From an uncultured bacterium (GTDB lineage Bacteria > Myxococcota_A > UBA9160 > SMWR01): a stretch of 34,408 nucleotides of DNA. The stretch covers positions 1 through 34,408 of the forward strand of contig CALDCK010000331.1 of NCBI GenBank assembly GCA_937937315.1. Direction: 5' to 3'. Position 1 is the stretch's first letter, and the number at the start of each line of letters is the position of its first letter. The position numbers were made by a program, and so were the translations under genes. Positions 1,578-34,408 of the stretch are shown piece after piece. Below the pieces are notes generated by a model. It ran no database searches, was not told where the DNA came from, and worked only from the letters and a program-made list of their open reading frames with translations.

Positions 1578-1669
1578 GGGGAAATTCACGACCCCGACGC
1601 GCCGAAGGGGCGCGTCGCCCCAAGCTCGGGGCAGGCGCGGGGCAGGATCGCCCGCTATTCGTGAAGGGG

Positions 1670-3327: not shown

Positions 3328-3473
3328 CACGATGCTCCTGTCGAGCCGCAGTGGGACCGTCGCCACCGGAGGGTCTTCGCCGATCGAAGACACACGGGGA
3401 GCCTTGGCCCGCACGCGGGCCCCTTCCCCTCGAACCGGCGCCGGAAGACGCCAACGGAATGCGCGAGAAGCGC

Positions 3474-5292: not shown

Positions 5293-5474
5293 TCCCCGGT
5301 CGGCTTGGCCGCACACCTCGGCAGCCCGCCGGGAGGTCGGCCTTCGGCGTCGTAGAGCGCGGCGATCCGCGAGAATCCGTGGGCGCCTCCCACGAGCCCC
5401 ACCTTCGGATCGCGTCGTAGGTGTCCGGCGCCCGAGCGGGCGTCATGGGCATCGCCGCCTCGGAGATGACGTCT
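5293..5474. other. Convergent intergenic stretch with a coding-like tract
   Basis: This separates the converging AKR-like and alcohol dehydrogenase genes. On the minus strand, in the dehydrogenase frame beyond its stop, codons from about 5424 down to 5300 show strong G/C third positions and read a plausible peptide (VGLVGGAHGFSRIAALYDAE). No start with a ribosome site is seen and I do not recognise the peptide. It may be a gene remnant or chance. Confidence 0.25.
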
Positions 5475-8574: not shown

Positions 8575-8575
8575 C

Positions 8576-9649: not shown

Positions 9650-9708
9650 CTCGTGTCACGGCACGCATCCGCGTGGTGCGCCCGATCCACCACTCCAGGG
9701 ACTCGTCC

Positions 9709-18204: not shown

Positions 18205-20082
18205 TCAGGCCCCGAGGCTCTCCGGATCCGGCGCGACGATCGGAAGCAGCACTTCGAAGCGCGCACCGTGCCCCGGCTTGGACTCCACGCGGATCTCGCC
18301 GCCGTGGGCGCGCACGATCTCGTAGGAGATATAGAGGCCGAGGCCAGTACCCTCTCCGACCGCCTTGGTGGTGAAGAAGGGGTCGAAGATCCGCTCGCGG
18401 GCCACGGGGTCGATGCCCGGACCGTCGTCCTCGATCCGGATCGCGGCGCGCGATCCGAGGTCCTTCGTCGTCACCCGCAGCGTCCCCGTCTCCCCCATCG
18501 CCTGGAAGGCATTCACGACGAGGTTCAGGATGACCTGCCCCAGCTGGCTGGCGATACAGGAGATGGGCTCGATCGGTGCGTAGGCGCGCTCGACGACGAT
18601 GCCTGCCGGACGCTGAACCTCGGCGACACGCAACGCTCCGTCGATCAGCTCCGAAAGATCGAATCGCTCGAAGCGGGTATCGCTCGCCCGGGAGAACTCG
18701 CGCACCTCGCGCACGATCGCGATCGCCCGGTCGACGCCCTCGAGGGAGTCGTCGATGAGCTCCTCGCACTCGCCGAGGTTCGCCGTCAGCGGATCCGGCC
18801 ACCCCGCCTTCTCGGCGTCCGCCGTGAGGGCGCCCCACTCACGCCGCAAGGCGCCGAGGTTCGAGCGGACGTAGGCCATCGGATTGTTGATCTCGTGGGC
18901 GATGCCCGCGGCGAGCTGCCCCACGGACTCGAGCTTCTGCGACTGTCGGATGCGCTCCTCGAGTTCGATTCGCTCCGCGACCCGACCGACCTGAAGGCCC
19001 GTGTCGGCGAGGACCCGGATCATCCGCTCGTCGATGGGAGTGGCGTCGCCGCCGAAGAACTCGAGAATCGCGACCACCTCGTCGGCCGAAGGCACCGGGA
19101 TCGCAACGACCGACCGCAGCCCGAGCTCTGCGGCACAGCGCCCCCGCGGCGAGTCCGAGGTGGCGATGCGGCCCTCGGTAGCCCACACGGGGCGGCCGGA
19201 TTCGACGACCCTTCTCAACGCGTTGTCGCCGGGCCCCAATCGGGTCTCCAGGGTCAGCCGCCTCAGAGGTGCGTAGTGCACCGAATCGTCGTCGAGCCAC
19301 ACGGGGCCCGAGACGAGATCGCCGGAGCCGTCGACAGCGAGCGACCAGACGTGGGCCACGTGCCAGCCGCTGGTCTCCATCGCCCGCCGCGCAAAGCCCT
19401 CGAGCGCACTCTCGAAGGTGCGAGCCTCGTTCGCGGCCACGGCGGCATGCTGCAGCAGCTTGACGCAGGCCGCCTCCCGCGCCAGGTCCCGGTGACTCTC
19501 CTCGAGCTCTCGATCGGCGTTCCGCTGGCTCACGACGAAGCTCGTCGAGAGCACCGCCAGACCGGCGATCGCCGTCAGACGATTGAAGAGCGCCTGGGCC
19601 TCCATCGATTCCGCCGGCACCAGGTTCGGCACCACGATCCCGTAGGAGGGAAGCAGCCAGAAGACCACGGTGCTCACCATGGCCACGGCCGTCCAGGCCC
19701 AGCTGCTGCCGAGCCCGAGCAGGTAGGCGGCGGCCACCGGAATCGTGTAGAGCCAGGCGAAGTTGGGATCGTAGAAGCCGCCGGTGGACGAGAGCGAGAG
19801 CAGAAGCAGCGTGCAGTAGAGGCCGATGGCGAGATTTCCGGCGCGGCGCGTGCGCCCTGACCGGCGCAGCCACACGAGGTTCGCTCCGCAGGCCGCCATC
19901 GTGATCAGCAGAGCACCGGTGAGGCTCGGGACGCCCAGGGCCCAGTAACGGAAGGCCGTTGGGATGCCGATCGTGAACATCCCAAGGGTGCCCAGCTGAA
20001 TCGCCCGCGCCCGCCGCTCGTCGTCGGCACGCAGCCGCGTAGACCGGGCGATTCCGGCGCCCGCCGATTCCAAGCGCAGCAT
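18205..20082 (-). CDS. Membrane-bound sensor histidine kinase with GAF domain
   Basis: 625 residues. Residues about 28-190 hold five or six membrane segments (e.g. LTGALLITMAACGANLVWL, AVAMVSTVVFWLLPSYGIV). A coiled linker (RNADRELEESHRDLAREAA) leads to a GAF domain (about 230-370; SVVAIPVPSADEVVAILEFF). Then come the dimerisation/phosphoacceptor region with His396 (IAHEINNP), and the ATPase domain with N box (QVILNLVVNAFQAM), G1 (DDGPGID), F (FDPFFTTK) and G2 (GEGTGLGLYI). No receiver domain or adjacent response regulator exists, so it is an orphan kinase and its partner is elsewhere. The HEINNP type with ATPase is common among kinases that feed sigma-54 activators. The start at 20082 follows AGGGA; a longer frame to 20286 runs into the divergent symporter gene. 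Confidence 0.92.
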   Translation of the reverse strand: MLRLESAGAGIARSTRLRADDERRARAIQLGTLGMFTIGIPTAFRYWALGVPSLTGALLITMAACGANLVWLRRSGRTRRAGNLAIGLYCTLLLLSLSSTGGFYDPNFAWLYTIPVAAAYLLGLGSSWAWTAVAMVSTVVFWLLPSYGIVVPNLVPAESMEAQALFNRLTAIAGLAVLSTSFVVSQRNADRELEESHRDLAREAACVKLLQHAAVAANEARTFESALEGFARRAMETSGWHVAHVWSLAVDGSGDLVSGPVWLDDDSVHYAPLRRLTLETRLGPGDNALRRVVESGRPVWATEGRIATSDSPRGRCAAELGLRSVVAIPVPSADEVVAILEFFGGDATPIDERMIRVLADTGLQVGRVAERIELEERIRQSQKLESVGQLAAGIAHEINNPMAYVRSNLGALRREWGALTADAEKAGWPDPLTANLGECEELIDDSLEGVDRAIAIVREVREFSRASDTRFERFDLSELIDGALRVAEVQRPAGIVVERAYAPIEPISCIASQLGQVILNLVVNAFQAMGETGTLRVTTKDLGSRAAIRIEDDGPGIDPVARERIFDPFFTTKAVGEGTGLGLYISYEIVRAHGGEIRVESKPGHGARFEVLLPIVAPDPESLGA

Positions 20083-20227
20083 CAGACCGATCCCTGCCCC
20101 ATCGGATCCACCCCTCCTTCTATCGGTCCGCCCGGGGTGCCGATGAAGAAGGTCCCGATTGCAGCCCCAGCGGAGCGCTCCACGCCGCGCCTGGCGCGCA
20201 TCCGAGACGAACCGCAAGCTGGGGCGG

Positions 20228-22159
20228 ATGCCCCCCCAGGTTGATCCCATTCGCGGCGCCCTCACCGGACTCGATGCGCTGATCATCCTCGCCTTTGCGG
20301 CCTACGCCCTCACCGTGGGCTGGCGGGCGCGCAAGAAGGCGTCGAGCGGTCTCGAGTCCTACTTCCTGGCGTCGCGAAGCCTCAGCGGCTGGAAGGCTGG
20401 GCTCAGCATGGCGGCGACCCAGTTCGCGGCGGACACGCCGCTGCTGGTCACGGGACTGATCGCCACCGCCGGGATCTTCTCCCTGTGGAGGCTCTGGATC
20501 TACGCCCTCGCGTTCCTGCTTCTTGGCTTCCTGCTTGCGCCGAGCTGGCGGCGCGCACGGGTGGTGACCGACGCGGAGCTCGCCGAGATCCGCTACGGCT
20601 CGCGAGGCGCCGCATGGCTGCGCGCCGCGAAGGCGCTCTACTTCGGCACGGTCTTCAACTGCGTAGTCCTCGCCATGGTCTTCTGGGCCGCGAAGGAGAT
20701 CGCGGAGCCCTTCCTGTCCTGGCACGACTGGTTGCCGACCGCGGTCTTCGAGCCAGTCCGGACCGTGGTCGCGTGGGTGGGCGTCCCCTTTGCGAGCGTC
20801 GGGAGCGGAGGAGCGGAGACCTGGATCCGCTCTGCCGACAACCTCATCTCCCTCGCGCTGCTGCTCGGCGTGACATTCCTCTACTCCGCAACCGGAGGAC
20901 TCCGGGGTGTGGTGCAGACCGACGTCGTCCAGCTCGCCCTGATGCTGGGCGCGACCGCGCTCTACGCCGGAATCGTCCTGTTCGAGACGGGAGGCCCCCA
21001 CGCCCTCGCGACGCAGCTCCGGGAGACCTACGCCGCGGGAGGGCCGGGGGGCATCCGACCCGACGAGATGCTCGCATTCACACCCTCACGCGCGAATGAC
21101 GCGGGCCTGGCACTGCTCGCGGTGTTCGGACTCCAGTGGCTGGTGCAGATGAACGCGGACGGGACGGGCTACCTCGCACAGCGCACGATGGCCTGCCGCA
21201 GCGACGCCGATGCCGTGCGCGCGACCCTCGTCTTCAGCGTCACCCAGATCCTGGTGCGCAGCCTGCTCTGGCTGCCGATCGGCGTGGGTCTGCTCGTTCT
21301 CTTCCCCGCGGAGCCTGGTGTGATGGGGGCAACGCTCGTCGCCGAACGCGAGGCGACCTTCGTCCGGGGAATGGCGGAGCTGCTCCCCACGGGCGTCCGA
21401 GGCGCGATGCTCGCCGCCATGCTGGCGGCTCTCGCCTCGACGATCGACACCCACCTGAACTGGGGGGCGTCCTACTGGTCCAACGACCTCTACGGCCGCT
21501 TCTACTGCAGCTGGCGCGGACGACCGGCTCACCCACGCGAGCTCGTACGCGTTGCGCGCATCTCGAGCGGCCTGATCCTCCTCATCGCTTTGGCCGTGAT
21601 GACTCAGCTCGCCTCGATCCAGGCGGCGTGGCACGCGAGCCTGCTGCTCGGAGCCGGTATGGGGGTGCCCCTGGTGTTGCGCTGGATCTGGTGGCGCGTC
21701 ACGGCCTGGGGAGAGCTCGCGGCGATCCTCACCTCGACGGCGCTGGCGCCCGTGCTGCTCCAGGTCACGGACCATGAAGCGCTGCGTCTGCTTGCGATCG
21801 CGGCAGCCTCGACGATCGCAGCGGTGGCGACATCCCTCATCGGCCCGACCGAGCCCCGCGCGCAGCTACGAGTCTTCTACGTCCGGGTCCGACCTCCGGG
21901 CTTCTGGCGACCCATAGCCCGGGAAGCATCCGGGGCGGCCGACGACGGCCCGCGCCGGCTCGCAGGCGCGCTCGCGGCCACCGGACTCACCGCCCTCTGC
22001 CTCTTCTGCACCCTCACGGGCCTCGGATCATGGCTGGTCGAAGGTACACCCCCGAGCTGGCTCCCGGACCGCAGCACCTGGATCGCCCTGCTGCTGGGGC
22101 TCGCTGCGGCCCTCGCGCCCCTCGCCTGGCGCTTCGCGTCCCCCTTCGTGCGCCGCTGA
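20228..22159 (+). CDS. Sodium:solute symporter (SSS) family transporter
   Basis: 643 residues with about 13-14 hydrophobic segments. SSS-family marks: an early helix (LDALIILAFAAYALTVGW), then ESYFLASRSLSGWKAGLSMAATQFAADTPL (TM2-TM3 substrate/sodium region), FLYSATGGLRGVVQTDVVQLALML and AAMLAALASTIDTHLNWGASY (the Na+-binding helix with Ser/Thr). It imports an organic solute with Na+ at the inner membrane; the solute cannot be named. The C-terminal 100 residues carry two more helices and a short tail. ATG at 20228 follows GGGGCGG. It is divergent from the sensor kinase, so a shared control region of 145 bases lies between them, and it ends one base before the convergent transporter's stop. Confidence 0.9.
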   Translation: MPPQVDPIRGALTGLDALIILAFAAYALTVGWRARKKASSGLESYFLASRSLSGWKAGLSMAATQFAADTPLLVTGLIATAGIFSLWRLWIYALAFLLLGFLLAPSWRRARVVTDAELAEIRYGSRGAAWLRAAKALYFGTVFNCVVLAMVFWAAKEIAEPFLSWHDWLPTAVFEPVRTVVAWVGVPFASVGSGGAETWIRSADNLISLALLLGVTFLYSATGGLRGVVQTDVVQLALMLGATALYAGIVLFETGGPHALATQLRETYAAGGPGGIRPDEMLAFTPSRANDAGLALLAVFGLQWLVQMNADGTGYLAQRTMACRSDADAVRATLVFSVTQILVRSLLWLPIGVGLLVLFPAEPGVMGATLVAEREATFVRGMAELLPTGVRGAMLAAMLAALASTIDTHLNWGASYWSNDLYGRFYCSWRGRPAHPRELVRVARISSGLILLIALAVMTQLASIQAAWHASLLLGAGMGVPLVLRWIWWRVTAWGELAAILTSTALAPVLLQVTDHEALRLLAIAAASTIAAVATSLIGPTEPRAQLRVFYVRVRPPGFWRPIAREASGAADDGPRRLAGALAATGLTALCLFCTLTGLGSWLVEGTPPSWLPDRSTWIALLLGLAAALAPLAWRFASPFVRR

Positions 22160-22160
22160 G

Positions 22161-23030
22161 TCAGCTCTCCGGCTCACGGCGGCGCCACCACAGGACGGCG
22201 ATCCCCGCCAGCGGATAGCCAACCGCCACATAGAGGCCGCCAAAGAAGGTGAGGTCGAGCCGGTCGAGGCCCGAGAGTGCGATGATGGTCGCGACGGCGA
22301 CGTTCCGGGCCGAGAACTCGACCAGGAAGGTGAAGCGATCCGGGGCGGAGAGCCGCAGGAGGACGGCCATGCCCCAGCCGATCGCCATCGCCGACAAGGT
22401 CCAGACCCCGGCGGCCAGGAATCCGATCCCGAGGTCGTCGAAGCCAACCTGCATGTCCTCCTCGTCACTGAAGACGATGGACAGGGCGACCAGCACTGCG
22501 ATCGCGATCATCGCCCAGCGTTGGATCCGCGGGGCGTAGCGATGGGCGAGATCCGGACGACGCGCGCGCACGAGCATCCCGAGCGCGATGGGCAGGAGCA
22601 GTGCGAAGGCGAGCTGGAGGGTGAGCACGCCGACCGGCACGTCCACGACGATACTGTCACCGAGGAAGACCCGGACCCCGAGCGCCGCGACCACGGGCAG
22701 GGTCGCGACAGAGAGCACCGAGGCCACCCCGGTCAAGGTGACGGAGAGAGCCGTGTTCGCGCGTGCCAGGGCGACGAGGATGTTGGAGATCCCGGCACCG
22801 GGCGACGCCGCCACCAGGATCGCACCCGCACCGAAGACCGGCGGCACGTCGAGCAGCGCCACGACGCACCAGGTCATCAGGGGCAGCAGAAGGAGCTGCG
22901 CGAGGGTGCCGCCGACCACCGCCGCCGGCGCCCGCATGACCCGGTAGAAGTCCGCCGGCGTCAGCTCGAGCCCGACGATCACCATCAGGATGAAGAGCAC
23001 GACGGGGCCGACGAGCTGGGTCTCGGTCAT
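22161..23030 (-). CDS. Bile acid:sodium symporter (BASS/SBF) family transporter
   Basis: 289 residues with eight to ten hydrophobic helices. The family marks are visible: VGLELTPADFYRVMRAP (the crossing loop after helix 1), ILVAASPGAGISNILVALARANTALSVTLT (the discontinuous helix with Na+-binding residues) and FSARNVAVATIIAL (second crossover, the ARN-x-A motif). It imports organic anions with Na+, for instance keto acids or sterol-like acids. ATG at 23030 lacks a good ribosome site, but the helix 1 start fits. The family's N-terminal helix looks slightly short. It is convergent with the SSS gene. Confidence 0.9.
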   Translation of the reverse strand: MTETQLVGPVVLFILMVIVGLELTPADFYRVMRAPAAVVGGTLAQLLLLPLMTWCVVALLDVPPVFGAGAILVAASPGAGISNILVALARANTALSVTLTGVASVLSVATLPVVAALGVRVFLGDSIVVDVPVGVLTLQLAFALLLPIALGMLVRARRPDLAHRYAPRIQRWAMIAIAVLVALSIVFSDEEDMQVGFDDLGIGFLAAGVWTLSAMAIGWGMAVLLRLSAPDRFTFLVEFSARNVAVATIIALSGLDRLDLTFFGGLYVAVGYPLAGIAVLWWRRREPES

Positions 23031-23871: not shown

Positions 23872-24261
23872 ATGGCCGAAGACCTGCGAGCCGAAGCCCG
23901 ACCCCATCCGGATGAAGTGATCGAGCGCCGCGACACGGGACTCCGGATCCTGCTCACACTCCTGTTCCTGCTGATCGCGGCGGTGATCGAGAGCGTCCTC
24001 GCCCTGATCGTGATCTTCGAGCTGCTCTGGGCCCTCGTCACGAAGGAGGTGGCGAGCCCGAGAGTCCGCGACCTGGCCAACCGGATGATCGCCTACTACT
24101 ACCGGGTCGGGCGGTACCTCACCTACAACGATTCGCAGGTGCCGTTTCCCTTCTCGGACTTTCCCGGTCCCGTCGAGCCCGGCGGCTGGCGGGGCGGCAG
24201 CCCGGAAGCCGACGCCCTTGGCCTCGCCAACCTCGAGGATTCCCGCAGGCCCGGCGTCTAG
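23872..24261 (+). CDS. DUF4389 membrane protein
   Basis: 129 residues. A charged N-terminus (MAEDLRAEARPHPDEVIERRD) is followed by one long or two tight hydrophobic segments (LRILLTLLFLLIAAVIESVLALIVIFELLWALV) and the conserved stretch VRDLANRMIAYYYRVGRYLTYNDSQVPFPFSDFP, which defines DUF4389. Function is unknown; the protein is an inner-membrane one. ATG at 23872 follows AGGAGGACACC, a strong ribosome site. Transcription probably depends on the sigma-54 promoter at 23807-23822. The stop TAG overlaps the stop TAG of the giant gene on the other strand within one CTAG (24258-24261). Confidence 0.88.
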   Translation: MAEDLRAEARPHPDEVIERRDTGLRILLTLLFLLIAAVIESVLALIVIFELLWALVTKEVASPRVRDLANRMIAYYYRVGRYLTYNDSQVPFPFSDFPGPVEPGGWRGGSPEADALGLANLEDSRRPGV

Positions 24262-27200
24262 CCCTCCCGACTTCCCGGGCGAGGCGAACCAGAACGCCTC
24301 GCCCGACGTCGCGCCAGGGCTCCGAGGCCGATGAGTCCGGCCAGCAGGCCCTCGGCCCCCGGCTCGGGCAGGCGGATCGTGGTGACCGAGGCCGAGCCCT
24401 CGGCCCCGTGACTGTCGATCGAGGTCGCGGTCACCTCGTGGGTCCCGATCGAGAGCGTGGACGTGGTGAAGCTCACTCCGGCACCGATCGCGCCGTCCAG
24501 GTTCGAGCTCCAGAGGAGGCCCCCGCTCAGATCACCGTCCTCGGCGTCGAGCGCGCTGCCGGTGAAGGTCAGGGGCGTGCCCGACTCGGACGACGAGCCC
24601 TCCGCGGGCGCATCGATCGTCACCTGGGGTGCGGTATTCGCGTTCACGGTCAGCCCGATCGTGGCGGAGCCCGGCGCACCGTGGGCGTCTACCACCGAGG
24701 CCGTGATCACGTGGGGACCCACCGACAGCACCGAGGTCGAGAAGGATACGCCGCTGCCGATCGGTCCATCGACATCCGAGCTCCAGGCCAGACTCGCGCT
24801 GAGGTCGCCGTCCTCGGCGTCCGTCGCCGAGCCTGTGAACGTGAGCGAGTCCGTCGCGATCGAGGTCGATCCATCGCCCGGGGCGCTGATCGTCACCGCC
24901 GGTGCCGTGTTCGCATTCACTGTCACCGTGATCGCTGCCGAGCCCGGTGCACCGTGGGAATCGATCACCGAGGCCGTGATCACGTGAGCTCCCACCGACA
25001 GCGCCGACGACGCGAAGGATGCGCCCGCGCCGATGGCGCCGTCCAGACTCGAGACCCAGGAGAGGCTGCCGCTCAGATCCCCATCCTGGAGATCGCTTGC
25101 ACTGCCCGAGAAGGTGACCGGATCCGTTGCAACGAACACCGAGCCGTCCGCGGGTGCAGAGATCGAGACGCTGGGCGCCGTGTTCGGGGCGACCGTGATC
25201 GTGATCGATGCAGAGCCCGGGGCCCCGTGGCCATCGACGACCGAGGCCGTGATCTCGTGGGCTCCGATGGACAGGGTCGAGAGGGAGAACGAGGCGCCGC
25301 TTCCGATCGGGCCGTCGACGTCCGAGGTCCAGAAAAGGCTCCCCCCGAGATCCCCGTCCTCGTCGTCCGTCGCCGAGGCCGCGAAGCTCAGGGAATCGGT
25401 CTCGATCGACGCGGCGCCGTCTCCGGGCGAGGTAATCGTCACCACCGGCGCTGCGTTGGCATTCACCGTGACGGTGATCGACGTCGAGCCCGGCGCCCCA
25501 TGGCTGTCGGTCACCGACGCGGTGATGACATGGGTGCCGATCGAGAGGGCCGCGAAGGGGAAGCTCGCACCGCTGCCGATCGGGCCGTCCACATCCGACT
25601 CCCAGGCGAGGCCCGCTGAGAGGTCGCCGTCCTCGGTGTCGGTCGCCCCAGCGCTGAAGGTCAGGGAGTCCGTGGCCGTGGCCGTGGACCCGTCCAGGGG
25701 AGACGAGATCGTCACCTGGGGCGCCGTGTTCGCGTTCACCGTGACGCTCACCGTCGCGGCGGCGCTGTTGCCGTCCCCATCGGTCGCCGTCGCCGTGATC
25801 GTGTGGGTCCCTACCGAAAGGTTGGAGATCGAGAAGCCGGCCCCGCTACCGATCGCGCCATCCAGGTCCGACGTCCACAGCAGGCTGGCCGTCACATCGC
25901 CGTCCTGAGCGTCGATGGCCGTACCCGCGAAGCCCAGCAGCTCCGCCTCGATCGCCGTCGCCCCGTCCGTCGGCGCCGTGATCGTGACGTCCGGCCGGAT
26001 CGGCGTGAAGTCGACGTGAAGGATGGGAGCGTCCTGGGGCGACCCGTCGTGGGCCGTTGCGGTGCGGTTCGTTGCCAGATCGAGGGCGCTGATGATGAGG
26101 GTCATCGCGGCCCCTGGCGTCCAGCCGGCTCGATCCACCACCTCCTGGATCACGCCAGAGAGGTCCGAGGTCCTTTGACGGGCGCTGGTCTCACCGATGT
26201 CGTTCCAATCCGGCGGCGACCAACCGGCCCAGGACGAGGTGCGCACCCGCGAGGAGATGTCGCCGAGCCCGGTGGTGAGCGGAGGCGAGTCGTCGGAGGC
26301 CTCGGCTTCGATCATCAGCGAGGCCGGCCCCGGATCTTCCTCATCCGCCTCGAACTGGAGATACGCGCGATGGATCGTGGCCCCCCGGGAGATCGGCAAG
26401 CCCCGGAAGCGCAGCCCCACCTCGACCAGGTCCCCGCTGTTCAGGACCATGTCGAGGTCGGAGCTGGTGAGAGTGACCTCGCCAGTCTCTTCCGTCTCCT
26501 CGGCATCGTCGGCGTCGCTCTCGATCTGGATGTCGAGCGGGCTTCCCACCGACGCACAGACCCCGCCCGTACCGTCGTCGAGACAGGCGTCGCAGACGTC
26601 ACCGACTCCATCTCCGTCTCCGTCGTCCTGGGTCGGATTCCAGAGCGCCGGACAATTGTCGGCGCAAACCCCGTCGCCGTCCGGATCGACATCGATCGTC
26701 GCGCTGGCCGGGCACACGTCGCAGACATCGCCGGTGCCGTCGGCGTCGACGTCCTCCTGACCCGGGTTGAAGATGGCCGGACAGTTGTCAGCCCCATCAC
26801 ACGCGCCATCGAGATCCGGATCGAGGCCCGGAGCACAGGCGTTCACCGTGAAGGTGATCGACGCGGAGCCGAGTGAGCCATAGCTGTCGGTCACCGAAGC
26901 CGTGATCGCGTGGGTCCCGGGGGAGAGGGTCGCGAGGGCGAAGGTCGCGCCTCCACCGATCGAACCGTCCAGGTCGGAGACCCAGGCGAGGCTCTCGCTG
27001 AGGTCGCCGTCCTCCGTATCCGGCGCCGAGCCGGTGAAGGTGACCGAGGCCCCCTCCCCTGTGCTCGAGCCGTTCGCGGGCGAGGAGATCGTGACCGCCG
27101 GCGCCACGTTCGCATTCACCGTGACCGAGATTCCGGAGAAGCCCGTCGCACCGTGGCTGTCGGTCACCGAGGCCGAGATGACGTGGGTGCCGACCGAGAG

Positions 27201-30200
27201 GGTCGAGAGAGAGAAGCCCGCTCCGGCACCGATCGGCCCGTCGAGGTCGGAGCTCCAGGCCAGTGCTGCGCTGAGATCACCGTCCTCGCCATCCAATGCC
27301 GTCGCACTGAACTCGATCGGGTCGGTCTCGGTAACGGCGAGGCCATCGACCGGGGACGTGATCGCCACCACCGGCGTGCCGTTCGCACTCACGCTGACCC
27401 GGACCGCAGCGACGCCCGGGTTGCTGGCGCTGTCAGTCGCCGTCGCAGTGATCGTATGGGTTCCGACAGAGAGGGTCGAGAGGGAGAAGCCCGCTCCGCT
27501 GCCGATTGCACCCTCGAGGTTCGAGGTCCAGAGAAGGCTCGCCGTGACGTCGCCGTCTTCGACGTCGCTCGCCGTCGCGGCAAAGACCAGCGGGTCCGTC
27601 TCGACGGCGCTCGAGCCATCAGCGGGTGCGGTGATGACGACACTCGGCGCGCCGCCCGCGTTCACGGTCATGGTGATCCCAGCCGAGGCCGGCGCACCGT
27701 GGGTATCGCTCACCGAGGCCGTGATGACGTGGGTGCCCAGGGAGAGCGTGGAGAGAGAGAAGCTCGCCCCACTTCCGATCGGGCCGTCCAGACTCGAGAC
27801 CCAGGCCAGGCCTGGGCCGAGATCTCCGTCCTGGGCGTCCGGCGCCGAAGCCGCGAAGAGAACCGATGCGCCCTGGACGGAGGTCGAGCCACCGGCCGGG
27901 GCCGTGATCGTCACGTCCGGAGGCGTATTGACGTTCACCGTCACTCCGATGACGGCGGAGCCCGGCGCACCGTGGCTGTCGCTCACTGACGCGGTGATCG
28001 TGTGAAGCCCCGGCGAGAGGGTGGAGAGAGAGAAGAACCCACCACTCCCCATCGGGCCGTCCAGGCTCGACGTCCACGAGAGGCTCGCGGCGAGGTCACC
28101 ATCCTGCCCATCCGACGCTGTGGCGCTGAAGGCGAGAGAGTCCGTCTCGGTCGAGGTCGTGCCGTCGGCGGGTGAGGTGATGGTCACCACCGGCGCCGTG
28201 TTCGCGTTCACCGTCACCGAGATCGAGGCCGCGCCCGGCGCTCCGTGGGTGTCCGTCACCGAGGCGGTGATCGTGTGGATCCCCACGGAGAGCGTCGTCA
28301 GCGGGAAGGTCGTCCCGGTTCCGATCGCACCATCGATACTCGAGGTCCAGGACAGGCTTCCGCCGAGATCACCGTCCTGTCCATCCGTTGCCGTCGCAGT
28401 GAAGGTGAGGGAGTCCGTCTCGGTCGAGGTCGTGCCGTCGGCGGGCGCGGTGATGGTCACCACCGGCGCGGTGTTGGGGTTCACCGTCACCGAGATCGTG
28501 GCCTGGCCCGGCGCGCCGTGGCTATCGGTCACCGAGGCCGTGATCGTGTGGCTACCCACCGAGAGCGTCGTGAGCGGGAACGTCGCCCCGTTCCCGATCG
28601 CTCCGTCCAGGTTCGAGACCCAGGACAGACTGCCAGCGAGATCGCCGTCCTCGAGATCCGCCGCCGTGGCGGAGAACGCGAGGGACTCGGTCTCGATCGA
28701 GCTCGACCCGTCCGCGGGAGACGTGATGGTCACCACCGGGGGGGTATTGGCGGCGATCGTGATCGCGACCGTGGCGCTCCCGGACACCCCGTGGCTGTCC
28801 GTCACCGCCGCCGTGATCACATGGCTTCCCACGGAAAGGGTCGAGAGCGAGAATCCTGCCCCGCTGCCGATCGCTCCGTCCAGGTCCGAGGTCCAGGACA
28901 GGCTGCCGCTGAGATCGCCATCCAGGTCGTCCGTGGCAGATCCGCCGAAGCTGATGGGGTCCGTCTCGGTACCACTCGCCCCCTCGGTCGGGGATGCGAT
29001 CGTCACCACCGGCGCGGAGTTCGGATCCACCACGATCGTGATCGAAGCGGAGCCCAACGCTCCGTGGGCATCGGTCACGGCCGCAGTAATCGTATGGCTA
29101 CCGATCGAGAGGGTGGAGAGGGAGAAGCTCCCGCCACCGCCGAGGGCACCATCGATGTTCGACGTCCAGGCCAGACCCGCCGTCAGGTCTCCATCCTCAT
29201 CATCTGCTGCCGAAGCCGCGAAGCCCACCGGATCGGTCTCGATAGAGCTGGACCCATCAGCCGGCGCGGTGATCGTCACCACGGGTGCCGCGTTCGGATC
29301 GACCGTCACCGTGATTGCCGCTGACCCGGGCGCCCCGTGGCTGTCGGTCACGGCTGCCGTAATCGTATGGCTCCCCACCGACAGGCTCGAGAGGGCGAAG
29401 CTGGCACCGGTCCCGATCGCGCCGTCCAGGCTGGACGTCCAGGAGAGGCTCGCAGCGAGGTCGCCGTCCGGATCATCCGTGGCGCTGGCCTCGAAGGTGA
29501 TCGAGTCGGTCTCGGTCGAGGTCGCGCCATCCAGCGGCGAGACGATGGACACCACCGGCGGCGCGTTCGCGCTGACTGTGACGCCGATCGTCGCGGCACC
29601 GGGCGCGCCATGGCTGTCGCTCACCGAGGCCGTGATGACGTGTCCGCCCAGCGAGAGGCTTGAGACCGAGAAGGAGGCTCCCGTGCCGATCGGGCCGTCG
29701 ATGTCGGAGGCCCAGGACAGGCTCGCGCTCAGGTCTCCGTCCTCGCCGTCCGAGGCGGACCCGCTGAAGGTCAGCGAGTCGGTCTCGACCGAGGTCGACC
29801 CGTCCGCGGGCGTGACGATCGACACGACCGGAGGGGTGTTGACATTCACCGTGACCGAGATCGACGCGGATCCGGGCGCTCCCCCGCCGTCGCTGAGGGA
29901 CGCCGTGATGAGGTGTGTCCCCGGAGAGAGGGTCGTGAGCGAGAAGCTCGCGCCGCTGCCGATGGCTCCGTCGAGACTCGACGTCCAGGCGAGACTCGAC
30001 GAGAGGTCGCCTTCCTCGGTGTCCGTCGCGGACCCGGTGAAGGTCACCGAGTCGGTCTCCGTCGAGATCGCACCATCTGCCGGCGCGCTGATCGCCACCA
30101 CCGGCGGCGAGTTGACGCCCACCGTGACCGTCACGTCGGCCGTTCCCGCGGCGCCGTGGCTGTCCGTCACCGAGGCGGTGATGACGTGGGTGCCCTCGGG

Positions 30201-32918
30201 CAGGTTGGTGAGCTCAAAGGTCCCCCCGGTTCCGACCAGGATGCTCGGCGGCAGGGTCCACGAGATCGATGCAGTGAGGTCACCGTCCTCGTCGTCGCTT
30301 GCGCTTCCCGTGAAGGTGATCGACTCGGTATCCGTGAACACGGACCCGCTCGTGGGAGCCGTGATCACGACCACGGGCTGCGCGTTCGGGTTCACGACCA
30401 CCGAGATCCCGGCGGAGCCCTCGTTCCCATCGCCGTCCACGGCGGTGGCGACGATCCCATGAGTCCCCACCGAGAGGCTCGAGAGGGAGAAGCCCGCACC
30501 GCTGCCGATCGGTCCGTCGAGATCCGACACCCAGATCAGGCTCGCCGTCACGTCCCCGTCCTGGGCATCCGTCGCGGAGCCCGCAAACGTCACCGGGTCC
30601 GACTCGACAGAGCTCGATCCTTCTGCAGGAGATGTGATCTCCACCACGGGGCGAATCGGCGTGTACTCGACGTGGAGACGCGGCGCATTTGCGATCGACC
30701 CGTCTCGGGTGTCGGCCACCCGCGTCGACGCCAGGTCGAGAGCGCTGATGAGCATCGTCATCGCGGAGCCCGACGTCCAGCCCGGGCGGTCTACGATCTC
30801 CTGAACCACCTCGGACAGATCCGAGGTGCGCTGCCGCACTCCCGCGTCTCCCACCGCGAGCCAGTCGAGGGGCGACCAGCCTGCCCAGGCCGCGGTGCGC
30901 GTTCGGATCGACAGATCGAAAGAATCGGTGGTCAGTGGCGGGGAATCATCGGACGCCTCCGCCTCGATGATCAACGACGCCGGGCCCGAGTTCGCCTCGT
31001 CCGCCACGAACTGGAGATACGCCCGGTGCACTACCGAGCCCTGAGGGATGTCGATGCCCTGGAATCGCAGTCCCGCCATCTGGAGCTTCGCGTTGTCGTT
31101 CACCAGGTCGAGGTCGGAGCTCGTGATCGAGATCACTCCACTGGGAACCTTCTCCTCGCTGTCGTCCTGATCTTCGGAGATCGGCGCGTCGTAGACGTTC
31201 CCGAGGGGCGCACAGCTTCCTCCGGTGCCGTCGAGTTCGCAGGGATCGCAGACGTCTCCGACGCCGTCGCCGTCCGCATCCTCCTGGCCGGCGTTCCACA
31301 CGGCCGGGCAGTTATCCGCGCAGACTCCGTCGCCGTCGGGGTCCGAGTCGAGGGTCGCGCTCGCGGGACAGATGTCACAGGCATCGCCGAACCCGTCCCC
31401 GTCGACGTCCTCCTGGCCCGGGTCGAAGTCGATCGGACAGATGTCGATCCAATCGCAGACCCCGTCGACGTCTCCATCGAAGCCGGCGGGGCAGGCGCCG
31501 CATTGGAGGTCCGCCGCATCGACGGCTCCGTCGCAGTTGTTGTCGACCGTGTCTCCGCAGTTCTCTGCGGCCACCGGATCCGGGCTGGTCGCGGCATCCG
31601 CGTCGTCGCAGTCCTCTCCAGCGTCATAGCCATCGCCGTCCACATCCGGATCGCAATCGTCGCCGAAGCCATCGCCGTCGGTGTCGACCTGACCCGGGTT
31701 CACGAGTGCGGGACAGTTGTCTACGTCATCGCTCGCACCATCGCCGTCTGCGTCTCCGCCGGAGGTCCCCCGCGCCAGCACGAACACATCGGAGTCGGAG
31801 ACGGAAGCTCCATCGTTCGCCTCGAGCCGCAGCTGATAGGTCCCCGGGAAGCTGAAGGTCCCCGTCGTCGAGAGCGCCGAGGGGCTTCCGAGGCCCACGG
31901 GGCCCGGACCGGCGATGATCGACCAGGCGGTGGTCAAGGTCGCGGCCGGAACGCCATCATCGCTGGCCGAGCCCTCGAGGGGCGAAGGAATCCCGACATC
32001 GGTGATGAAGTCCGGGCCGGCGTCTACGCAGGGCGGACGATCGAGAGGCGTCGAGCCGGCGGGCCACGGGTCCCGCTCCACCACGAAGGTATTCGCGGGA
32101 TTCACGTCCATGGTCACGGTCACCCGAATGGGGGGCTCGAGCAGGGTGCCTCGCTCGAGCTGGATGCGGGTGACGTTGGGCTCGAGGAAGGGGTGATTGA
32201 GCTTCCAGTCGCGATTGTCCCCATGGATGTAGGCCAGGGGCTTTCCGAAGGTCGCTGCGGCGGTGCGAAACCCGCTCTCGAAGGGCTCGACCAGGGGCGA
32301 TTCGTGGGAGAAGACGACCGCAGCGCGAACGACACCGGCCTTCGCCAGAAGCTGCTGCGAAACCCAATCCGCGTCGTCCTGAAGCCGGGCCACCTGCTCG
32401 ACCGGGTCCTGGTTGATCCCGCCTACATGGTGGATGCCGACGAAGAGCACACCGTTCTGGACGAAGACGAAGTTCTCGGGCCGGGAGGCCTGGAACTCGA
32501 CCGTCGGCGCGCCACAGAAGTTCTCTTCGAAGCGCAGGAAGTAGGCGTTCCAGCGACTCCAGCCGAGGACCTTGTCGTCACAGTCGGCCCACTCGTTGTC
32601 TCCGGGGACCACGAAGGTGGGAACGGCGAGAGCGCCCAGGATGCTCGCGGCCGCTGCATAGTGCGCCTCTGCGCAACCCAGCTCGTCGGGCTTGAGATCC
32701 CCGAGATGGACCAGGAAATCGGAGGAGCTGTAGAGGTTGTGGTCCGCCACGTGCTGGACGAGGTCGGATTCCTCGGCGCCGCTGTAGGGCACATCGCTGA
32801 CCACGGAGAAGTCGATCGGACTCCCCTGGCTCCAGGCTGGTGCCGCGCTGGCGAGGGCCACGAGGGCGGAAAAGAGAGAGAGATGGACGAATCGGGCCGA
32901 TCGGTTGGTGAATCGCAA
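24258..32918 (-). CDS. Giant exported PEP-CTERM protein: phosphoesterase-like head, calcium-binding repeats and 20 Ig-like repeats
   Basis: 2886 residues in one unbroken frame. Signal peptide 1-31 (cleavage after AWSQ). Residues 32-265: metallophosphoesterase-like domain (HLGDLKP 71-77, VPGDNEW 104-110, FSHES 203-207, IHGDNR 231-236). 296-385: PKD-like. 387-562: thrombospondin type 3 Ca-binding repeats (DxDxDG) around a MopE-like motif (DCDDADAATSPD then DTVDNNCDGAVD, about 436-467). 575-752: a beta-rich module (HRAYLQF, VVQEIVDRPGW). 756-2027: 14 Ig-like repeats. 2028-2307: second TSP3 plus module. 2308-2850: six more repeats. C-terminus: LPEPGAEGLLAGLIGLGALARRRARR, a PEP-CTERM anchor. Probably a long calcium-stiffened surface stalk with an enzyme or binding head. 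The TTG start at 32918 is used because GAGG precedes it and the signal peptide begins there. Antisense frames are open but are shadows. Confidence 0.92.
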   Translation of the reverse strand: MRFTNRSARFVHLSLFSALVALASAAPAWSQGSPIDFSVVSDVPYSGAEESDLVQHVADHNLYSSSDFLVHLGDLKPDELGCAEAHYAAAASILGALAVPTFVVPGDNEWADCDDKVLGWSRWNAYFLRFEENFCGAPTVEFQASRPENFVFVQNGVLFVGIHHVGGINQDPVEQVARLQDDADWVSQQLLAKAGVVRAAVVFSHESPLVEPFESGFRTAAATFGKPLAYIHGDNRDWKLNHPFLEPNVTRIQLERGTLLEPPIRVTVTMDVNPANTFVVERDPWPAGSTPLDRPPCVDAGPDFITDVGIPSPLEGSASDDGVPAATLTTAWSIIAGPGPVGLGSPSALSTTGTFSFPGTYQLRLEANDGASVSDSDVFVLARGTSGGDADGDGASDDVDNCPALVNPGQVDTDGDGFGDDCDPDVDGDGYDAGEDCDDADAATSPDPVAAENCGDTVDNNCDGAVDAADLQCGACPAGFDGDVDGVCDWIDICPIDFDPGQEDVDGDGFGDACDICPASATLDSDPDGDGVCADNCPAVWNAGQEDADGDGVGDVCDPCELDGTGGSCAPLGNVYDAPISEDQDDSEEKVPSGVISITSSDLDLVNDNAKLQMAGLRFQGIDIPQGSVVHRAYLQFVADEANSGPASLIIEAEASDDSPPLTTDSFDLSIRTRTAAWAGWSPLDWLAVGDAGVRQRTSDLSEVVQEIVDRPGWTSGSAMTMLISALDLASTRVADTRDGSIANAPRLHVEYTPIRPVVEITSPAEGSSSVESDPVTFAGSATDAQDGDVTASLIWVSDLDGPIGSGAGFSLSSLSVGTHGIVATAVDGDGNEGSAGISVVVNPNAQPVVVITAPTSGSVFTDTESITFTGSASDDEDGDLTASISWTLPPSILVGTGGTFELTNLPEGTHVITASVTDSHGAAGTADVTVTVGVNSPPVVAISAPADGAISTETDSVTFTGSATDTEEGDLSSSLAWTSSLDGAIGSGASFSLTTLSPGTHLITASLSDGGGAPGSASISVTVNVNTPPVVSIVTPADGSTSVETDSLTFSGSASDGEDGDLSASLSWASDIDGPIGTGASFSVSSLSLGGHVITASVSDSHGAPGAATIGVTVSANAPPVVSIVSPLDGATSTETDSITFEASATDDPDGDLAASLSWTSSLDGAIGTGASFALSSLSVGSHTITAAVTDSHGAPGSAAITVTVDPNAAPVVTITAPADGSSSIETDPVGFAASAADDEDGDLTAGLAWTSNIDGALGGGGSFSLSTLSIGSHTITAAVTDAHGALGSASITIVVDPNSAPVVTIASPTEGASGTETDPISFGGSATDDLDGDLSGSLSWTSDLDGAIGSGAGFSLSTLSVGSHVITAAVTDSHGVSGSATVAITIAANTPPVVTITSPADGSSSIETESLAFSATAADLEDGDLAGSLSWVSNLDGAIGNGATFPLTTLSVGSHTITASVTDSHGAPGQATISVTVNPNTAPVVTITAPADGTTSTETDSLTFTATATDGQDGDLGGSLSWTSSIDGAIGTGTTFPLTTLSVGIHTITASVTDTHGAPGAASISVTVNANTAPVVTITSPADGTTSTETDSLAFSATASDGQDGDLAASLSWTSSLDGPMGSGGFFSLSTLSPGLHTITASVSDSHGAPGSAVIGVTVNVNTPPDVTITAPAGGSTSVQGASVLFAASAPDAQDGDLGPGLAWVSSLDGPIGSGASFSLSTLSLGTHVITASVSDTHGAPASAGITMTVNAGGAPSVVITAPADGSSAVETDPLVFAATASDVEDGDVTASLLWTSNLEGAIGSGAGFSLSTLSVGTHTITATATDSASNPGVAAVRVSVSANGTPVVAITSPVDGLAVTETDPIEFSATALDGEDGDLSAALAWSSDLDGPIGAGAGFSLSTLSVGTHVISASVTDSHGATGFSGISVTVNANVAPAVTISSPANGSSTGEGASVTFTGSAPDTEDGDLSESLAWVSDLDGSIGGGATFALATLSPGTHAITASVTDSYGSLGSASITFTVNACAPGLDPDLDGACDGADNCPAIFNPGQEDVDADGTGDVCDVCPASATIDVDPDGDGVCADNCPALWNPTQDDGDGDGVGDVCDACLDDGTGGVCASVGSPLDIQIESDADDAEETEETGEVTLTSSDLDMVLNSGDLVEVGLRFRGLPISRGATIHRAYLQFEADEEDPGPASLMIEAEASDDSPPLTTGLGDISSRVRTSSWAGWSPPDWNDIGETSARQRTSDLSGVIQEVVDRAGWTPGAAMTLIISALDLATNRTATAHDGSPQDAPILHVDFTPIRPDVTITAPTDGATAIEAELLGFAGTAIDAQDGDVTASLLWTSDLDGAIGSGAGFSISNLSVGTHTITATATDGDGNSAAATVSVTVNANTAPQVTISSPLDGSTATATDSLTFSAGATDTEDGDLSAGLAWESDVDGPIGSGASFPFAALSIGTHVITASVTDSHGAPGSTSITVTVNANAAPVVTITSPGDGAASIETDSLSFAASATDDEDGDLGGSLFWTSDVDGPIGSGASFSLSTLSIGAHEITASVVDGHGAPGSASITITVAPNTAPSVSISAPADGSVFVATDPVTFSGSASDLQDGDLSGSLSWVSSLDGAIGAGASFASSALSVGAHVITASVIDSHGAPGSAAITVTVNANTAPAVTISAPGDGSTSIATDSLTFTGSATDAEDGDLSASLAWSSDVDGPIGSGVSFSTSVLSVGPHVITASVVDAHGAPGSATIGLTVNANTAPQVTIDAPAEGSSSESGTPLTFTGSALDAEDGDLSGGLLWSSNLDGAIGAGVSFTTSTLSIGTHEVTATSIDSHGAEGSASVTTIRLPEPGAEGLLAGLIGLGALARRRARRSGSPRPGSREG
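24372..25997 (-). repeat. Ig-like repeat block B (6 copies of about 273 bp)
   Basis: Six in-frame tandem units of about 91 codons ending just before the PEP-CTERM tail. Each reads about PxVTIxxPxDGS, then DxEDGDLSxSLxW, SxLDGxIGxGxSF, LSxGxHxITAS and VTVNAN. The first unit has DGDGN in place of DSHGA. Confidence 0.9.
25998..26837 (-). repeat. Second copy of the TSP3 plus AYLQF-module cassette
   Basis: Encodes residues about 2028-2307: TSP3 repeats (NCPAIFNPGQEDVDADGTGD) then the module with HRAYLQFEADEEDPGP, DDSPPLTT, WAGWSPPDW, RQRTSDLSGVIQEVVDR. It matches 30654-31448 and 33801-34408 in order and motif, so it is a duplicated cassette. Confidence 0.85.
26838..30653 (-). repeat. Ig-like repeat block A (14 copies of about 273 bp)
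   Basis: Fourteen in-frame units (1272 codons, mean 90.9) with strict 273-base register. Unit 2 (30383-30111) is the outlier: TLPPSILVGTGGTFELTNL replaces the SxLDGxIG segment. Units 9 (28472-28200) and 10 (28199-27927) are nearly identical at DNA level over one stretch. Confidence 0.92.
30654..31448 (-). repeat. First copy of the TSP3 plus AYLQF-module cassette
   Basis: Encodes residues about 491-755: TSP3 repeats (DIDICP type, VDGDGFGDACD), then HRAYLQFVADEANSGP, DDSPPLTT, WAGWSPLDW, RQRTSDLSEVVQEIVDRPGW. It is the parent-like copy next to the MopE-type motif. Confidence 0.85.
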
Positions 32919-33156
32919 GGGAAGCCTCAGACAGCAGTTCCATCAGAGGTGCACGCCGCCCCCTGGTGGGCTGCGCAACACACTTGACGGCAGGCTATCC
33001 GGTGAGTGACCCGCGATCGCCGCACGTGACGAGTTCTACGGTGGAATGCGCACATCGCCATCACGAGCACGCATCATTCCATCGCATTGCGGCAGGAAGG
33101 AATCTCGGGGCCGATCGAACGCGGATCGTCGACTCGATTCGAGGTGCAGGACGCGG
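32919..33156. other. Intergenic region between the two giant-protein genes
   Basis: 238 bases with no gene. On the minus strand a partial sigma-54-like match, TGGAATGATGCGTGCT (33066-33081, GG-N10-GC), would place a start near 33055 and a leader of about 135 bases; three box mismatches make it weak. No hairpin with a U tract is seen, so transcription from the upstream paralogue could also read through. Confidence 0.3.
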
Positions 33157-34408
33157 CTAGCGATTCGCTCTCGAAGTCCACCGCGCGCGCCGATGTCGGG
33201 CCAGCGCTCCGAGGCCCAGCAGCCCCGCCAGCAGGCCCTCGCTCCCGGGCTCGGGCAGGCGAATGGTCGTTATCGCAGCGGATCCCTCGAGGCCCTGGGC
33301 ATCGAGGGCGATCGCGGTCACGACGTGGGTTCCCTGCGGAAGCGTGGAGATCGTGAAGTCCGTACCGGTCCCGATCGGTCCGACCAGGTTCGAGCTCCAG
33401 CTGAGGGTGGGCCCGAGATCACCGTCCTCGGCGTCGCTGGCACTGCCCGCGAAGGCAAGGGGAGCCCCGACCAGCGAGCTGGAGCCGTTGAGCGGCGCCG
33501 TGATCGTCACCTGGGGCGCCGTGTTGGGATCCACTGTGACGCCGACGTTTCCAGATCCGACGTTTCCGTCCCCATCGATCGCGGTCGCCGTGATCGTATG
33601 AGCGCCCACGGAGAGCGTCGAGAGCGCGAATCCAGCGCCGGTCCCGATCGGACCGTCGAGATCCGACGTCCACACGAGGTTCTCCGTCACGTCGCCCTCC
33701 TGGGGATCGACCGCAGTCCCCGCGAAGACCATCGAGGTTCCCTCGATCCAGATCGAGCCATCGGCGGGTGCACCGATCGTCACGACCGGCTCGGGGCGAG
33801 TGAACTCCACGTGCAGAGACGGCGCACCGGGCCCTGCGACGTCCGTGGACTGGGCGGTGCGGTTCGACGCCGCATCCAGGGCGCTCACGAGGATCGTGAA
33901 CGCCGATCCCGAGGTCCAGCCGGGACGGTCCACGATCTCCTGAACGACGTCGGAGAGATCCGAGCTGCGCTGCCTCGGACCCTCCTCGCCGATCTGGAGC
34001 CACTCCGGCGGTGACCAGCCCGCCCAGGCGGCGCTTCGCGGTCGGCTCGAGAGATCGCCTGGCGCGGAGGTCAGCGGCGGTGAGTCGTCGGAGGATTCGG
34101 CCTCGAGGATGAGTGAGGCCGGCCCCGTGTCCAGCTCGTCGGCGCGAAGCTGGAGGTACGCCCGGTGAATGATCGCCCCCGGCGGAATCGCGAGACCCGG
34201 GAAGCGCATCCCGGCGATCACCAACTCGCCACCGCTCAGCGTGAGGTCGAGGTCGAGACTGACCAGAGTGACGACCCCCGTCTGCACCTTCTCTTCCGCG
34301 TCGTCACCGGAATCCACGAGGGTAGTATCCAGCTCGTCACCGAGCGGCGTGCAGACCCCTCCCGTGCCATCCACCGCGCATACGTCGCACGCATCCCCCA
34401 CGCCGTCG
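33157..34408 (-). CDS. Paralogous PEP-CTERM protein with TSP3, AYLQF module and Ig-like repeats (5' partial)
   Basis: The last 416 codons of a gene whose start lies beyond the window. From the 5' side: a TSP3 end (DGVGDACDVC), the AYLQF module (HRAYLQLRADELDTGP, DDSPPLTSAPG, WAGWSPPEW, RQRSSDLSDVVQEIVDRPGW; about 34350-33801), two Ig-like repeats (the first with DGDGNVGSG), and the anchor LPEPGSEGLLAGLLGLGALARHRRARW. The tail is nearly the same as in the downstream giant protein, but only two repeats lie between module and anchor, against six. Likely a surface protein exported and sorted the same way. Its head domain cannot be seen. The same-direction order and shared parts point to tandem duplication. 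Confidence 0.9.
   Translation of the reverse strand, partial: DGVGDACDVCAVDGTGGVCTPLGDELDTTLVDSGDDAEEKVQTGVVTLVSLDLDLTLSGGELVIAGMRFPGLAIPPGAIIHRAYLQLRADELDTGPASLILEAESSDDSPPLTSAPGDLSSRPRSAAWAGWSPPEWLQIGEEGPRQRSSDLSDVVQEIVDRPGWTSGSAFTILVSALDAASNRTAQSTDVAGPGAPSLHVEFTRPEPVVTIGAPADGSIWIEGTSMVFAGTAVDPQEGDVTENLVWTSDLDGPIGTGAGFALSTLSVGAHTITATAIDGDGNVGSGNVGVTVDPNTAPQVTITAPLNGSSSLVGAPLAFAGSASDAEDGDLGPTLSWSSNLVGPIGTGTDFTISTLPQGTHVVTAIALDAQGLEGSAAITTIRLPEPGSEGLLAGLLGLGALARHRRARWTSRANR
33240..33800 (-). repeat. Two Ig-like repeats of the paralogue
   Basis: Two in-frame units of about 91-93 codons of the same type as blocks A and B. The first (RPEPVVTIGAPADGS, AIDGDGNVG) matches the first unit after the module in the other two cassettes; the second runs into TTIRLPEPG. 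Confidence 0.85.
33801..34408 (-). repeat. Third copy of the TSP3 plus AYLQF-module cassette (partial)
   Basis: The same order and motifs as at 30654-31448 and 25998-26837; the upstream TSP3 part is cut by the window edge. Confidence 0.8.

What the first reader, a model, noticed from the sequence alone, without database searches (positions are those of the whole stretch)
24372..34408. A cassette (TSP3, module, Ig-like repeat) duplicated three times across two genes
The same order occurs at 31448-30654, 26837-25998 and 34408-33801. In all three the first repeat after the module has DGDGN where later repeats have DSHGA, and in both genes the last repeat runs into TTIRLPEPG. Position-specific likeness shows the cassette moved as a unit while the internal repeats multiplied separately (14, 6 and 2 units).
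Basis: seen in the sequence. Interest (0 to 1): 0.5.

Follow-up and report, generated by a model that had tools for sequence, protein, structure and literature searches.

The report
Repeated sugar-binding-like modules on surface stalks
Two neighbouring bacterial genes encode long surface proteins in which a block (calcium-binding-type repeat, sugar-binding-like domain, first stalk domain) is repeated three times by old gene duplication; the parts are of known kinds, and the repeat count looks old rather than rapidly changing.

Summary
The cassette is a TSP3 block (97 aa), a 184-aa module and a 91-aa Ig (Big_7) repeat. It occurs twice in gene 24258-32918(-) and once in the cut gene 33157-34407(-). 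Copies align without gaps (TSP3 68/97, modules about 59%, first Ig 55-59 of 91). The arrays hold 14, 6 and 2 repeats.

Separate multiplication of the internal repeats is not shown. LPEPG is a PEP-CTERM sorting tail: other genes carry it and the genome has three exosortase matches.

The N-terminal half of the second gene probably lies at the end of contig C100, aligning without gaps to gene 1 over 466 aa at 62%. The two genes are then old whole-gene paralogues. The module has no Pfam hit, but its confident model (pLDDT 90.9) matches the polysaccharide-binding modules 8WAB and 7VBO/CBM96 (Z 15.1 and 13.0).

Best reading: exosortase-sorted, phosphoesterase-like surface proteins on Ig stalks carrying CBM96-fold modules. 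This is a new member of a known kind.

The parts
24258..32918 (-). gene 1, 2886 aa, TTG start: phosphoesterase-like N-terminus, PKD-like domain, TSP3/acidic repeats, two cassettes, 14 + 6 Ig repeats, PEP-CTERM tail
32031..32831 (-). N-terminal metallophosphoesterase-like domain (distant; motifs LGD, GDNEW, SHE, HGDN read by eye)
   Evidence: tblastn 22.8-29.8% to 8 plasmid records, 1 of them annotated metallophosphoesterase; no Pfam or PDB sequence hit
31764..32030 (-). PKD-like domain, 63% to C100
31494..31763 (-). TSP3 / acidic double-disulfide-type stretch before cassette A, 68% to C100
31203..31493 (-). cassette A: TSP3 block, 97 aa
30651..31202 (-). cassette A: module, 184 aa, CBM96-like fold
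30378..30650 (-). A01, first-type Ig repeat of cassette A
26838..30650 (-). array A, 14 Big_7 Ig repeats (A01-A14), period 273 bp
27648..27920 (-). A11, groups with A14 (the repeat before TSP3 block B) with moderate support
27375..27647 (-).
26547..26837 (-). cassette B: TSP3 block, 97 aa, 68/97 identical to A
25995..26546 (-). cassette B: module
25722..25994 (-). B01, first-type Ig repeat of cassette B
24357..25994 (-). array B, 6 Ig repeats; B06 runs into TTIRLPEPG
24258..24371 (-). PEP-CTERM-type tail of gene 1 (LPEPG, hydrophobic stretch, arginines)
33157..34407 (-). gene 2, 3' part (416 aa), cut by the contig end; the 5' part is probably C100:4798-6237 of the same genome
34342..34407 (-). 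cassette C: last 22 aa of the TSP3 block
33790..34341 (-). cassette C: module
33517..33789 (-). C01, first-type Ig repeat of cassette C
33244..33516 (-). C02, last Ig repeat, groups with B06
33157..33258 (-). PEP-CTERM-type tail of gene 2

Best explanation
The two genes are old tandem paralogues. Each encodes a secreted, exosortase-sorted surface protein: an N-terminal phosphoesterase-like domain and a PKD-like domain, then TSP3 repeats, a CBM96-fold module, a stalk of Ig (Big_7) repeats, and a PEP-CTERM tail. Gene 2 probably keeps the short layout (one cassette, 2 Ig repeats). Gene 1 gained a second TSP3-module-Ig block by internal duplication, and its Ig arrays grew by register-keeping exchange between 91-aa units. 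One such exchange probably placed a first-type repeat, A12, in the middle of array A. Likely working (inferred): the C-terminal tail is processed by an exosortase and leaves the protein at the cell surface; the Ig array acts as a stalk, perhaps stiffened by calcium at the TSP3 blocks; the modules bind a polysaccharide, plausibly the cell's own or surrounding exopolysaccharide; and the phosphoesterase-like domain is held at the far end. Shown here: anatomy, homology, relative likeness, predicted module fold, sorting-tail context. Inferred: ligand binding, activity, surface location, order of duplications.
For: Gap-free cassette alignments. Exclusive module clade, 99/100. First-type clade with A12 in four tree runs and the only quadruple of 7315 with six near-diagnostic columns. 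B06 + C02 pair, starred in two of four runs and 94/86 and 94/92 in the others. C100 ORF 62% over 466 gap-free aa to gene 1 and ending inside the same TSP3 block where gene 2 begins; about 70 aa (210 bp) would be missing between them. PEP-CTERM-like tails on 12 further ORF ends (counted by eye among 29 places) and three exosortase matches over cut-off. Module model pLDDT 90.9; best PDB matches are two polysaccharide-binding modules, 8WAB Z 15.1 and 7VBO Z 13.0. In Sinorhizobium chiapasense plasmid pA, neighbouring genes independently pair the module with other repeats and with a metallophosphoesterase-like or propeller-like domain (domain names by eye).
Against: First repeats are not unusually alike in columns 1-33, next to the module. 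No synonymous trace of descent is left: same-codon fraction among first-type repeats 0.495 against 0.528 for all pairs and 0.479 expected from usage. Order of the three cassettes unresolved (MB+MC 75/75; other pairings not rejected, p-AU 0.10 and 0.19). Window modules have no Pfam CBM96 hit. The phosphoesterase-like domain has no Pfam, NCBIfam or PDB sequence hit, and its metal motifs look altered by eye. No read evidence joins C100 to the window.
Confidence: 0.66

Rival explanations
1. The first repeats look alike not by shared descent but by convergence: each abuts a module, so the same contact residues were selected independently.
For: Synonymous sites carry no shared signal, and likeness is limited to columns 34-80.
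Against: A12 has all six signature residues without a module next to it. The signature does not lie in the third of the domain that adjoins the module in sequence. The modules and TSP3 blocks also align without gaps.
Confidence: 0.17
2. Array A is two arrays fused: a fourth cassette once stood between A11 and A12 and lost its TSP3 block and module, leaving a last-type repeat (A11) next to a first-type repeat (A12).
For: A12 is first-type; A11 groups with A14, the repeat before TSP3 block B (95/86 starred, 75/82, and 87/82); unusual linker NAGGA at the A11 end.
Against: The clade A11+A14+B06+C02 is not recovered in protein trees (not rejected either). A deletion restoring the exact 91-aa register is less simple than an exchange between repeats.
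Confidence: 0.22
3. A rapidly varying 'periscope'-type stalk whose repeat number changes between strains.
For: Tandem Ig stalk on a tail-sorted surface protein.
Against: Repeats are only 53-80% identical in DNA with near-saturated synonymous sites and no exact repeat of 40 bases; periscope proteins have highly identical repeats (PMC8201768, passages read).
Confidence: 0.06
4. Assembly artefact: repeat copies misjoined in a short-read MAG.
For: The contig ends inside a TSP3 repeat; MAG of 486 contigs.
Against: No exact repeat of 40 bases or more in the region; one continuous frame of 2886 aa with constant register.
Confidence: 0.04

Closest known systems
Fibrillar-adhesin-like multidomain surface proteins (stalk repeats plus binding domain; PMC8286594)
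   Same: Long secreted protein, tandem Ig-type stalk domains, distinct non-stalk domains.
   Different: No known adhesive Pfam domain was found; sorted by a PEP-CTERM-type tail; binding-fold modules repeat inside the stalk; enzyme-like N-terminus.
CBM96 / DNRLRE modules (7VBO, PMC9971899) and the chondroitin-sulfate-binding module 8WAB
   Same: Predicted fold of the module: Z 13.0 over 154 residues and Z 15.1 over 162 residues.
   Different: 14-17% identity; no Pfam CBM96 hit in the window copies; ligand residues not tested.
Domain-repeat expansion by blocks of several domains (PMC1553488)
   Same: Block-wise duplication and growth in the middle of the array.
   Different: Here the block mixes three domain types (TSP3, module, Ig) and is repeated across two neighbouring genes.
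Periscope proteins (PMC8201768)
   Same: Tandem stalk that would set the distance of an N-terminal domain.
   Different: Repeats are old and divergent, so fast length change by recombination is unlikely.

Membership tests
Big_7 bacterial Ig repeats (PF17957) | Profile match over the Pfam cut-off | tested here: met
   P0001 208.5 bits, 20 stretches; P0002 25.4 bits against cut-off 24.1. Some single repeats fall below the cut-off in the six-frame search.
Thrombospondin type 3 repeats (PF02412) | Profile match over the Pfam cut-off | tested here: met
   P0001 25.9 bits against 25.0, 4 stretches. P0002 holds only 22 aa of the block and was not hit.
PEP-CTERM / exosortase sorted proteins | C-terminal PEP motif, hydrophobic stretch, basic end | tested here: met
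   Read directly. NCBIfam PEP-CTERM models match only below cut-off: TIGR02595 15.1 bits against 16 for gene 2; gene 1 tail best at other PEP-CTERM families, E 0.006-0.07.
PEP-CTERM / exosortase sorted proteins | Exosortase encoded in the same genome | tested here: met
   Three PF09721 matches over cut-off.
CBM96 | Sequence match to PF24517 | tested here: not met
   No hit for window modules; 1 of 46 relatives hits at E 8.7e-4.
CBM96 | Fold of the founding member 7VBO | tested here: met
   Z 13.0, rmsd 3.4, 154 aligned; Foldseek E 1.3e-5. Typical best Z without a clear match is 7-8 according to the tool.
CBM96 | Glycan binding | not testable with these tools
   Needs a binding assay.
Metallophosphoesterases | Sequence match to the family | tested here: inconclusive
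   22.8-29.8% to 8 plasmid records, one annotated metallophosphoesterase; no Pfam, NCBIfam or PDB sequence match.
Periscope proteins | Highly identical tandem repeats | tested here: not met
   53-80% DNA identity over 80 codons, longest exact repeat under 40 bases.
Periscope proteins | Repeat number differs between strains | not tested
   No close relative with the array among the genomes searched.

The most novel reading that the evidence does not exclude
A surface phosphoesterase-like protein in which glycan-binding-fold modules are set at two fixed heights along an exactly registered Ig stalk, so that it is threaded into the exopolysaccharide layer at defined distances; a paralogue with the same head, one module and two Ig repeats works at short range. 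The spacing, not only the domains, would be the selected trait, which would explain why every one of the 19 repeats followed by another keeps exactly 91 residues after synonymous sites have saturated.
Probability: 0.2. Interest if true: 0.5.

Novelty: new member of a known kind. Interest (0 to 1): 0.28.

Why it matters
It documents, in an unnamed environmental genome, how a mixed-domain block (TSP3, binding-fold module, Ig) can be copied as a whole while the edge repeats stay recognisable and internal repeats blur. It links a widespread domain family that no Pfam model covers here (97 relatives found in viral contigs, more in Sinorhizobium plasmids) to the CBM96 fold, which makes its ligand testable. 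The phenomenon itself, domain-block duplication in surface proteins, is well known.

Tried and rejected
Module by sequence: Pfam and NCBIfam gave nothing for the window copies. PDB sequence searches gave only chance-like hits to designed propellers and antibody chains. PHROGs: 1 of 46 members, a family without a name.

First structure job (module + first Ig, 20 rows): the module part was poor (mean pLDDT 56.7), so the module-Ig interface could not be judged. Only the second, deeper job (46 rows) was used for fold searches.

Chimera test of A12 (5' part internal-type, 3' part first-type): not decidable, because the first repeats themselves share nothing special in columns 1-33.

'Last-type' clade A11+A14+B06+C02: suggested by columns 17-18, not recovered in protein trees, not rejected (in DNA the held tree scored higher than the free search); kept only as a rival.

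Of the 97 genomes, five have Ig matches at E 1e-15, the window's own included; among the 30 matches listed (79 genomes) no other genome shows module and Ig matches in one frame, apart from one module match in G017 that runs some residues past the module. The nearest kin held are of the same family, not the same genus.

Neighbours of the module elsewhere: 7 loci read by eye show no TSP3 + Ig. A pattern scan of 80 viral-contig loci (of 97 found) gave 0 with TSP3 or Ig, but the patterns also miss the Ig repeats of gene 2, so that zero is weak.

Paper searches for the combination: PEP-CTERM + Ig-like + thrombospondin type 3 and PEP-CTERM + phosphoesterase + Ig-like list one and the same ice-binding-protein paper, not opened. 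A search for a paper on 8WAB gave none that I used.
Full report
WHAT IS THERE. The window is the whole of contig C331 of a metagenome-assembled genome (4.26 Mb, 486 contigs, 84.5% complete). Gene 1 (24258-32918, minus strand, 2886 aa) and the cut gene 2 (33157-34407, minus strand, 416 aa) lie head to tail. Gene 1 holds 14 + 6 and gene 2 holds 2 Ig repeats of the Big_7 type. Every repeat that is followed by another, 19 of 22, is exactly 91 aa long. Tandem Repeats Finder sees a 273-base period over 26883-30182.

THE CASSETTE. Each cassette is a TSP3 block of 97 aa, a module of 184 aa and a first Ig repeat. Copies A and B align without gaps: TSP3 68 of 97 identical, module 109 of 184, first Ig 58 of 91. 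Copy C shows 16 and 15 of 22 for the remaining TSP3 piece against A and B, 108 and 109 of 184 for the module, and 55 and 59 of 91 for the first Ig. In its own genome the module occurs only here, and so do these Ig repeats. Modules A, B and C form one exclusive clade (99/100) against seven outgroup modules, with the order inside unresolved.

Trees of the 22 repeats under two protein models and one DNA model, and a further protein tree with six outgroup repeats, all recover a starred group of A01, B01, C01 and also A12 (99/96, 100/97, 98/95; 96/95). The three firsts alone are a branch in two of the four trees, with weak support (47/54 and 84/77), and are not rejected in the other two. {A01, A12, B01, C01} is the only one of 7315 quadruples with six near-diagnostic columns; the next has two. 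By plain mean identity this quadruple ranks 8th of 7315 in protein and 55th in DNA, because the internal trio A08-A10 is more alike. In a search with module B + B01, A12 is the best Ig match outside the cassettes (69%).

RESULTS AGAINST A SIMPLE 'UNIT' STORY. The first-repeat likeness lies in columns 34-80 (0.70-0.77 against 0.55 to internal repeats), while columns 1-33, next to the module, show none (0.52-0.58 against 0.54). Synonymous sites are close to saturation (median pS 0.55; same-codon fraction 0.528 against 0.479 expected from usage). The events are therefore old and cannot be ordered. Internal repeats do not separate by array: identity within A 0.640, within B 0.677, between 0.635, with 305 of 1001 splits as high. 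Leaving out the divergent A02 gives 53 of 715 in protein and 11 of 715 in DNA. All of A as one clade is rejected in two of three trees (p-AU 0.018 and 0.019) and not in the third (0.067); the internal A repeats alone as a clade are not rejected. 'Multiplied separately' is thus possible but not shown.

HOW IT PROBABLY AROSE. A search with the TSP3 region found contig C100 (6237 bases), whose last ORF (4798-6237) runs off the contig end. Its translation aligns without gaps to residues 15-480 of gene 1 at 62% (phosphoesterase-like 60%, PKD-like 63%, acidic stretch 68%). It stops five residues into the TSP3 block (aa 480 of gene 1), and gene 2 in the window starts at the counterpart of aa 551. The simplest inference is that C100 and the window flank a gap of about 210 bases in gene 2; there is no exact overlap and no read evidence. 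Genes 1 and 2 would then be whole-gene paralogues. Gene 1 carries an extra internal copy of TSP3-module-Ig, and the gene ends correspond (B06 with C02). A12 is best explained by an exchange between a late repeat and a first repeat that kept the 91-aa register. The rival is a lost fourth cassette between A11 and A12 (A11 groups with A14 at moderate support).

THE SORTING TAIL. LPEPG followed by a hydrophobic stretch and arginines is a PEP-CTERM-type tail. A search with the gene 1 tail gave 29 places in the genome. Reading the frames, 12 places outside the two genes end in a V/L-PEP tail of this kind (counted by eye). Three exosortase matches exceed the Pfam cut-off. NCBIfam PEP-CTERM models are reached only below cut-off. 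The shared ending is thus mostly a common signal, while TTIR and EGLLAG are shared by these two genes only, within the tails seen.

THE MODULE. No Pfam or NCBIfam family matches the window copies. Relatives exist in 6 of 96 other genomes, in one Saprospiraceae contig, in 4 plasmid records and at 97 places in viral contigs. A model built on 46 rows has mean pLDDT 90.9. Its best solved matches are the chondroitin-sulfate-binding module 8WAB (Z 15.1, rmsd 3.3, 162 aligned) and the alginate-binding CBM96 founder 7VBO (Z 13.0, rmsd 3.4, 154 aligned), followed by TGF-beta-family prodomains (Z about 9-11). One of 46 relatives reaches the Pfam CBM96 model at E 8.7e-4. The same prodomain likeness is told for 7VBO itself in PMC9971899 (passages read). 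So the fold is CBM96-like, membership by sequence is not met, and glycan binding is an inference.

HOW IT PROBABLY WORKS (inference). Secretion, then exosortase processing at the C-terminus, leaves the protein at the surface. PMC11980579 (passages) says that exosortases and related enzymes appear to leave substrates on the cell surface. TSP3 repeats bind calcium in other proteins (recalled). The Ig array then serves as stalk, the modules as glycan-binding sites, and the phosphoesterase-like domain sits at the far end. Its motifs depart from the textbook set (GDNE where GNHE/D is usual; recalled), so activity is uncertain. In Sinorhizobium chiapasense plasmid pA, neighbouring genes join the module to other repeats and to a metallophosphoesterase-like or propeller-like domain (names by eye), which suggests the module is a general accessory of extracellular enzymes.

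COMPARISON WITH THE KNOWN. Growth of domain repeats by blocks of several domains, often in the middle of the array, is described in PMC1553488 (abstract and section 9 read). Long stalk-plus-binding-domain proteins are described as fibrillar adhesins (PMC8286594, passages). Periscope proteins have highly identical repeats and fast number change (PMC8201768, passages), which does not fit 53-80% DNA identity and no exact repeat of 40 bases. I therefore file this as a new member of a known kind.

Noticed in passing
G000:C100:4798-6237 (locus L091): ORF running off the contig end looks like the missing N-terminal half of gene 2, 62% identical and gap-free to gene 1.
   Followed up: partly
window 27647-27375: A12: first-type Ig repeat in the middle of array A without a module; A11 before it resembles A14.
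   Followed up: yes
window 30377-30105: A02 is the most divergent repeat (40-57% aa identity to all others).
   Followed up: no
window 2536-3414 (-): Another ORF with a PEP-CTERM-type tail (VPEP, hydrophobic stretch, RRARR) in the same window (L068).
   Followed up: no
L094 (Sinorhizobium chiapasense plasmid pA): At least three neighbouring ORFs each carry the module with tandem repeats of another type; two also carry a propeller-like or metallophosphoesterase-like domain.
   Followed up: partly
L016, L018, L019 (genomes G034, G049, G047): Module-bearing proteins of relatives end in a Cys-Gly tail with hydrophobic stretch and arginines, resembling a MYXO-CTERM-type tail, rather than PEP-CTERM (by eye).
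   Followed up: no
L021 (genome G013, same family): Module preceded by a PKD-like domain similar to that of gene 1 and a propeller-like region (by eye).
   Followed up: no
window 58-1803, 6835-8613, 9574-10794, 15247-16614, 18205-20286, 22161-23030: Neighbouring ORFs: wax ester synthase/DGAT, malic enzyme, AstE/AspA-type deacylase, ABC1 kinase-like, histidine kinase, bile acid symporter family; no evident link to the surface genes.
   Followed up: no
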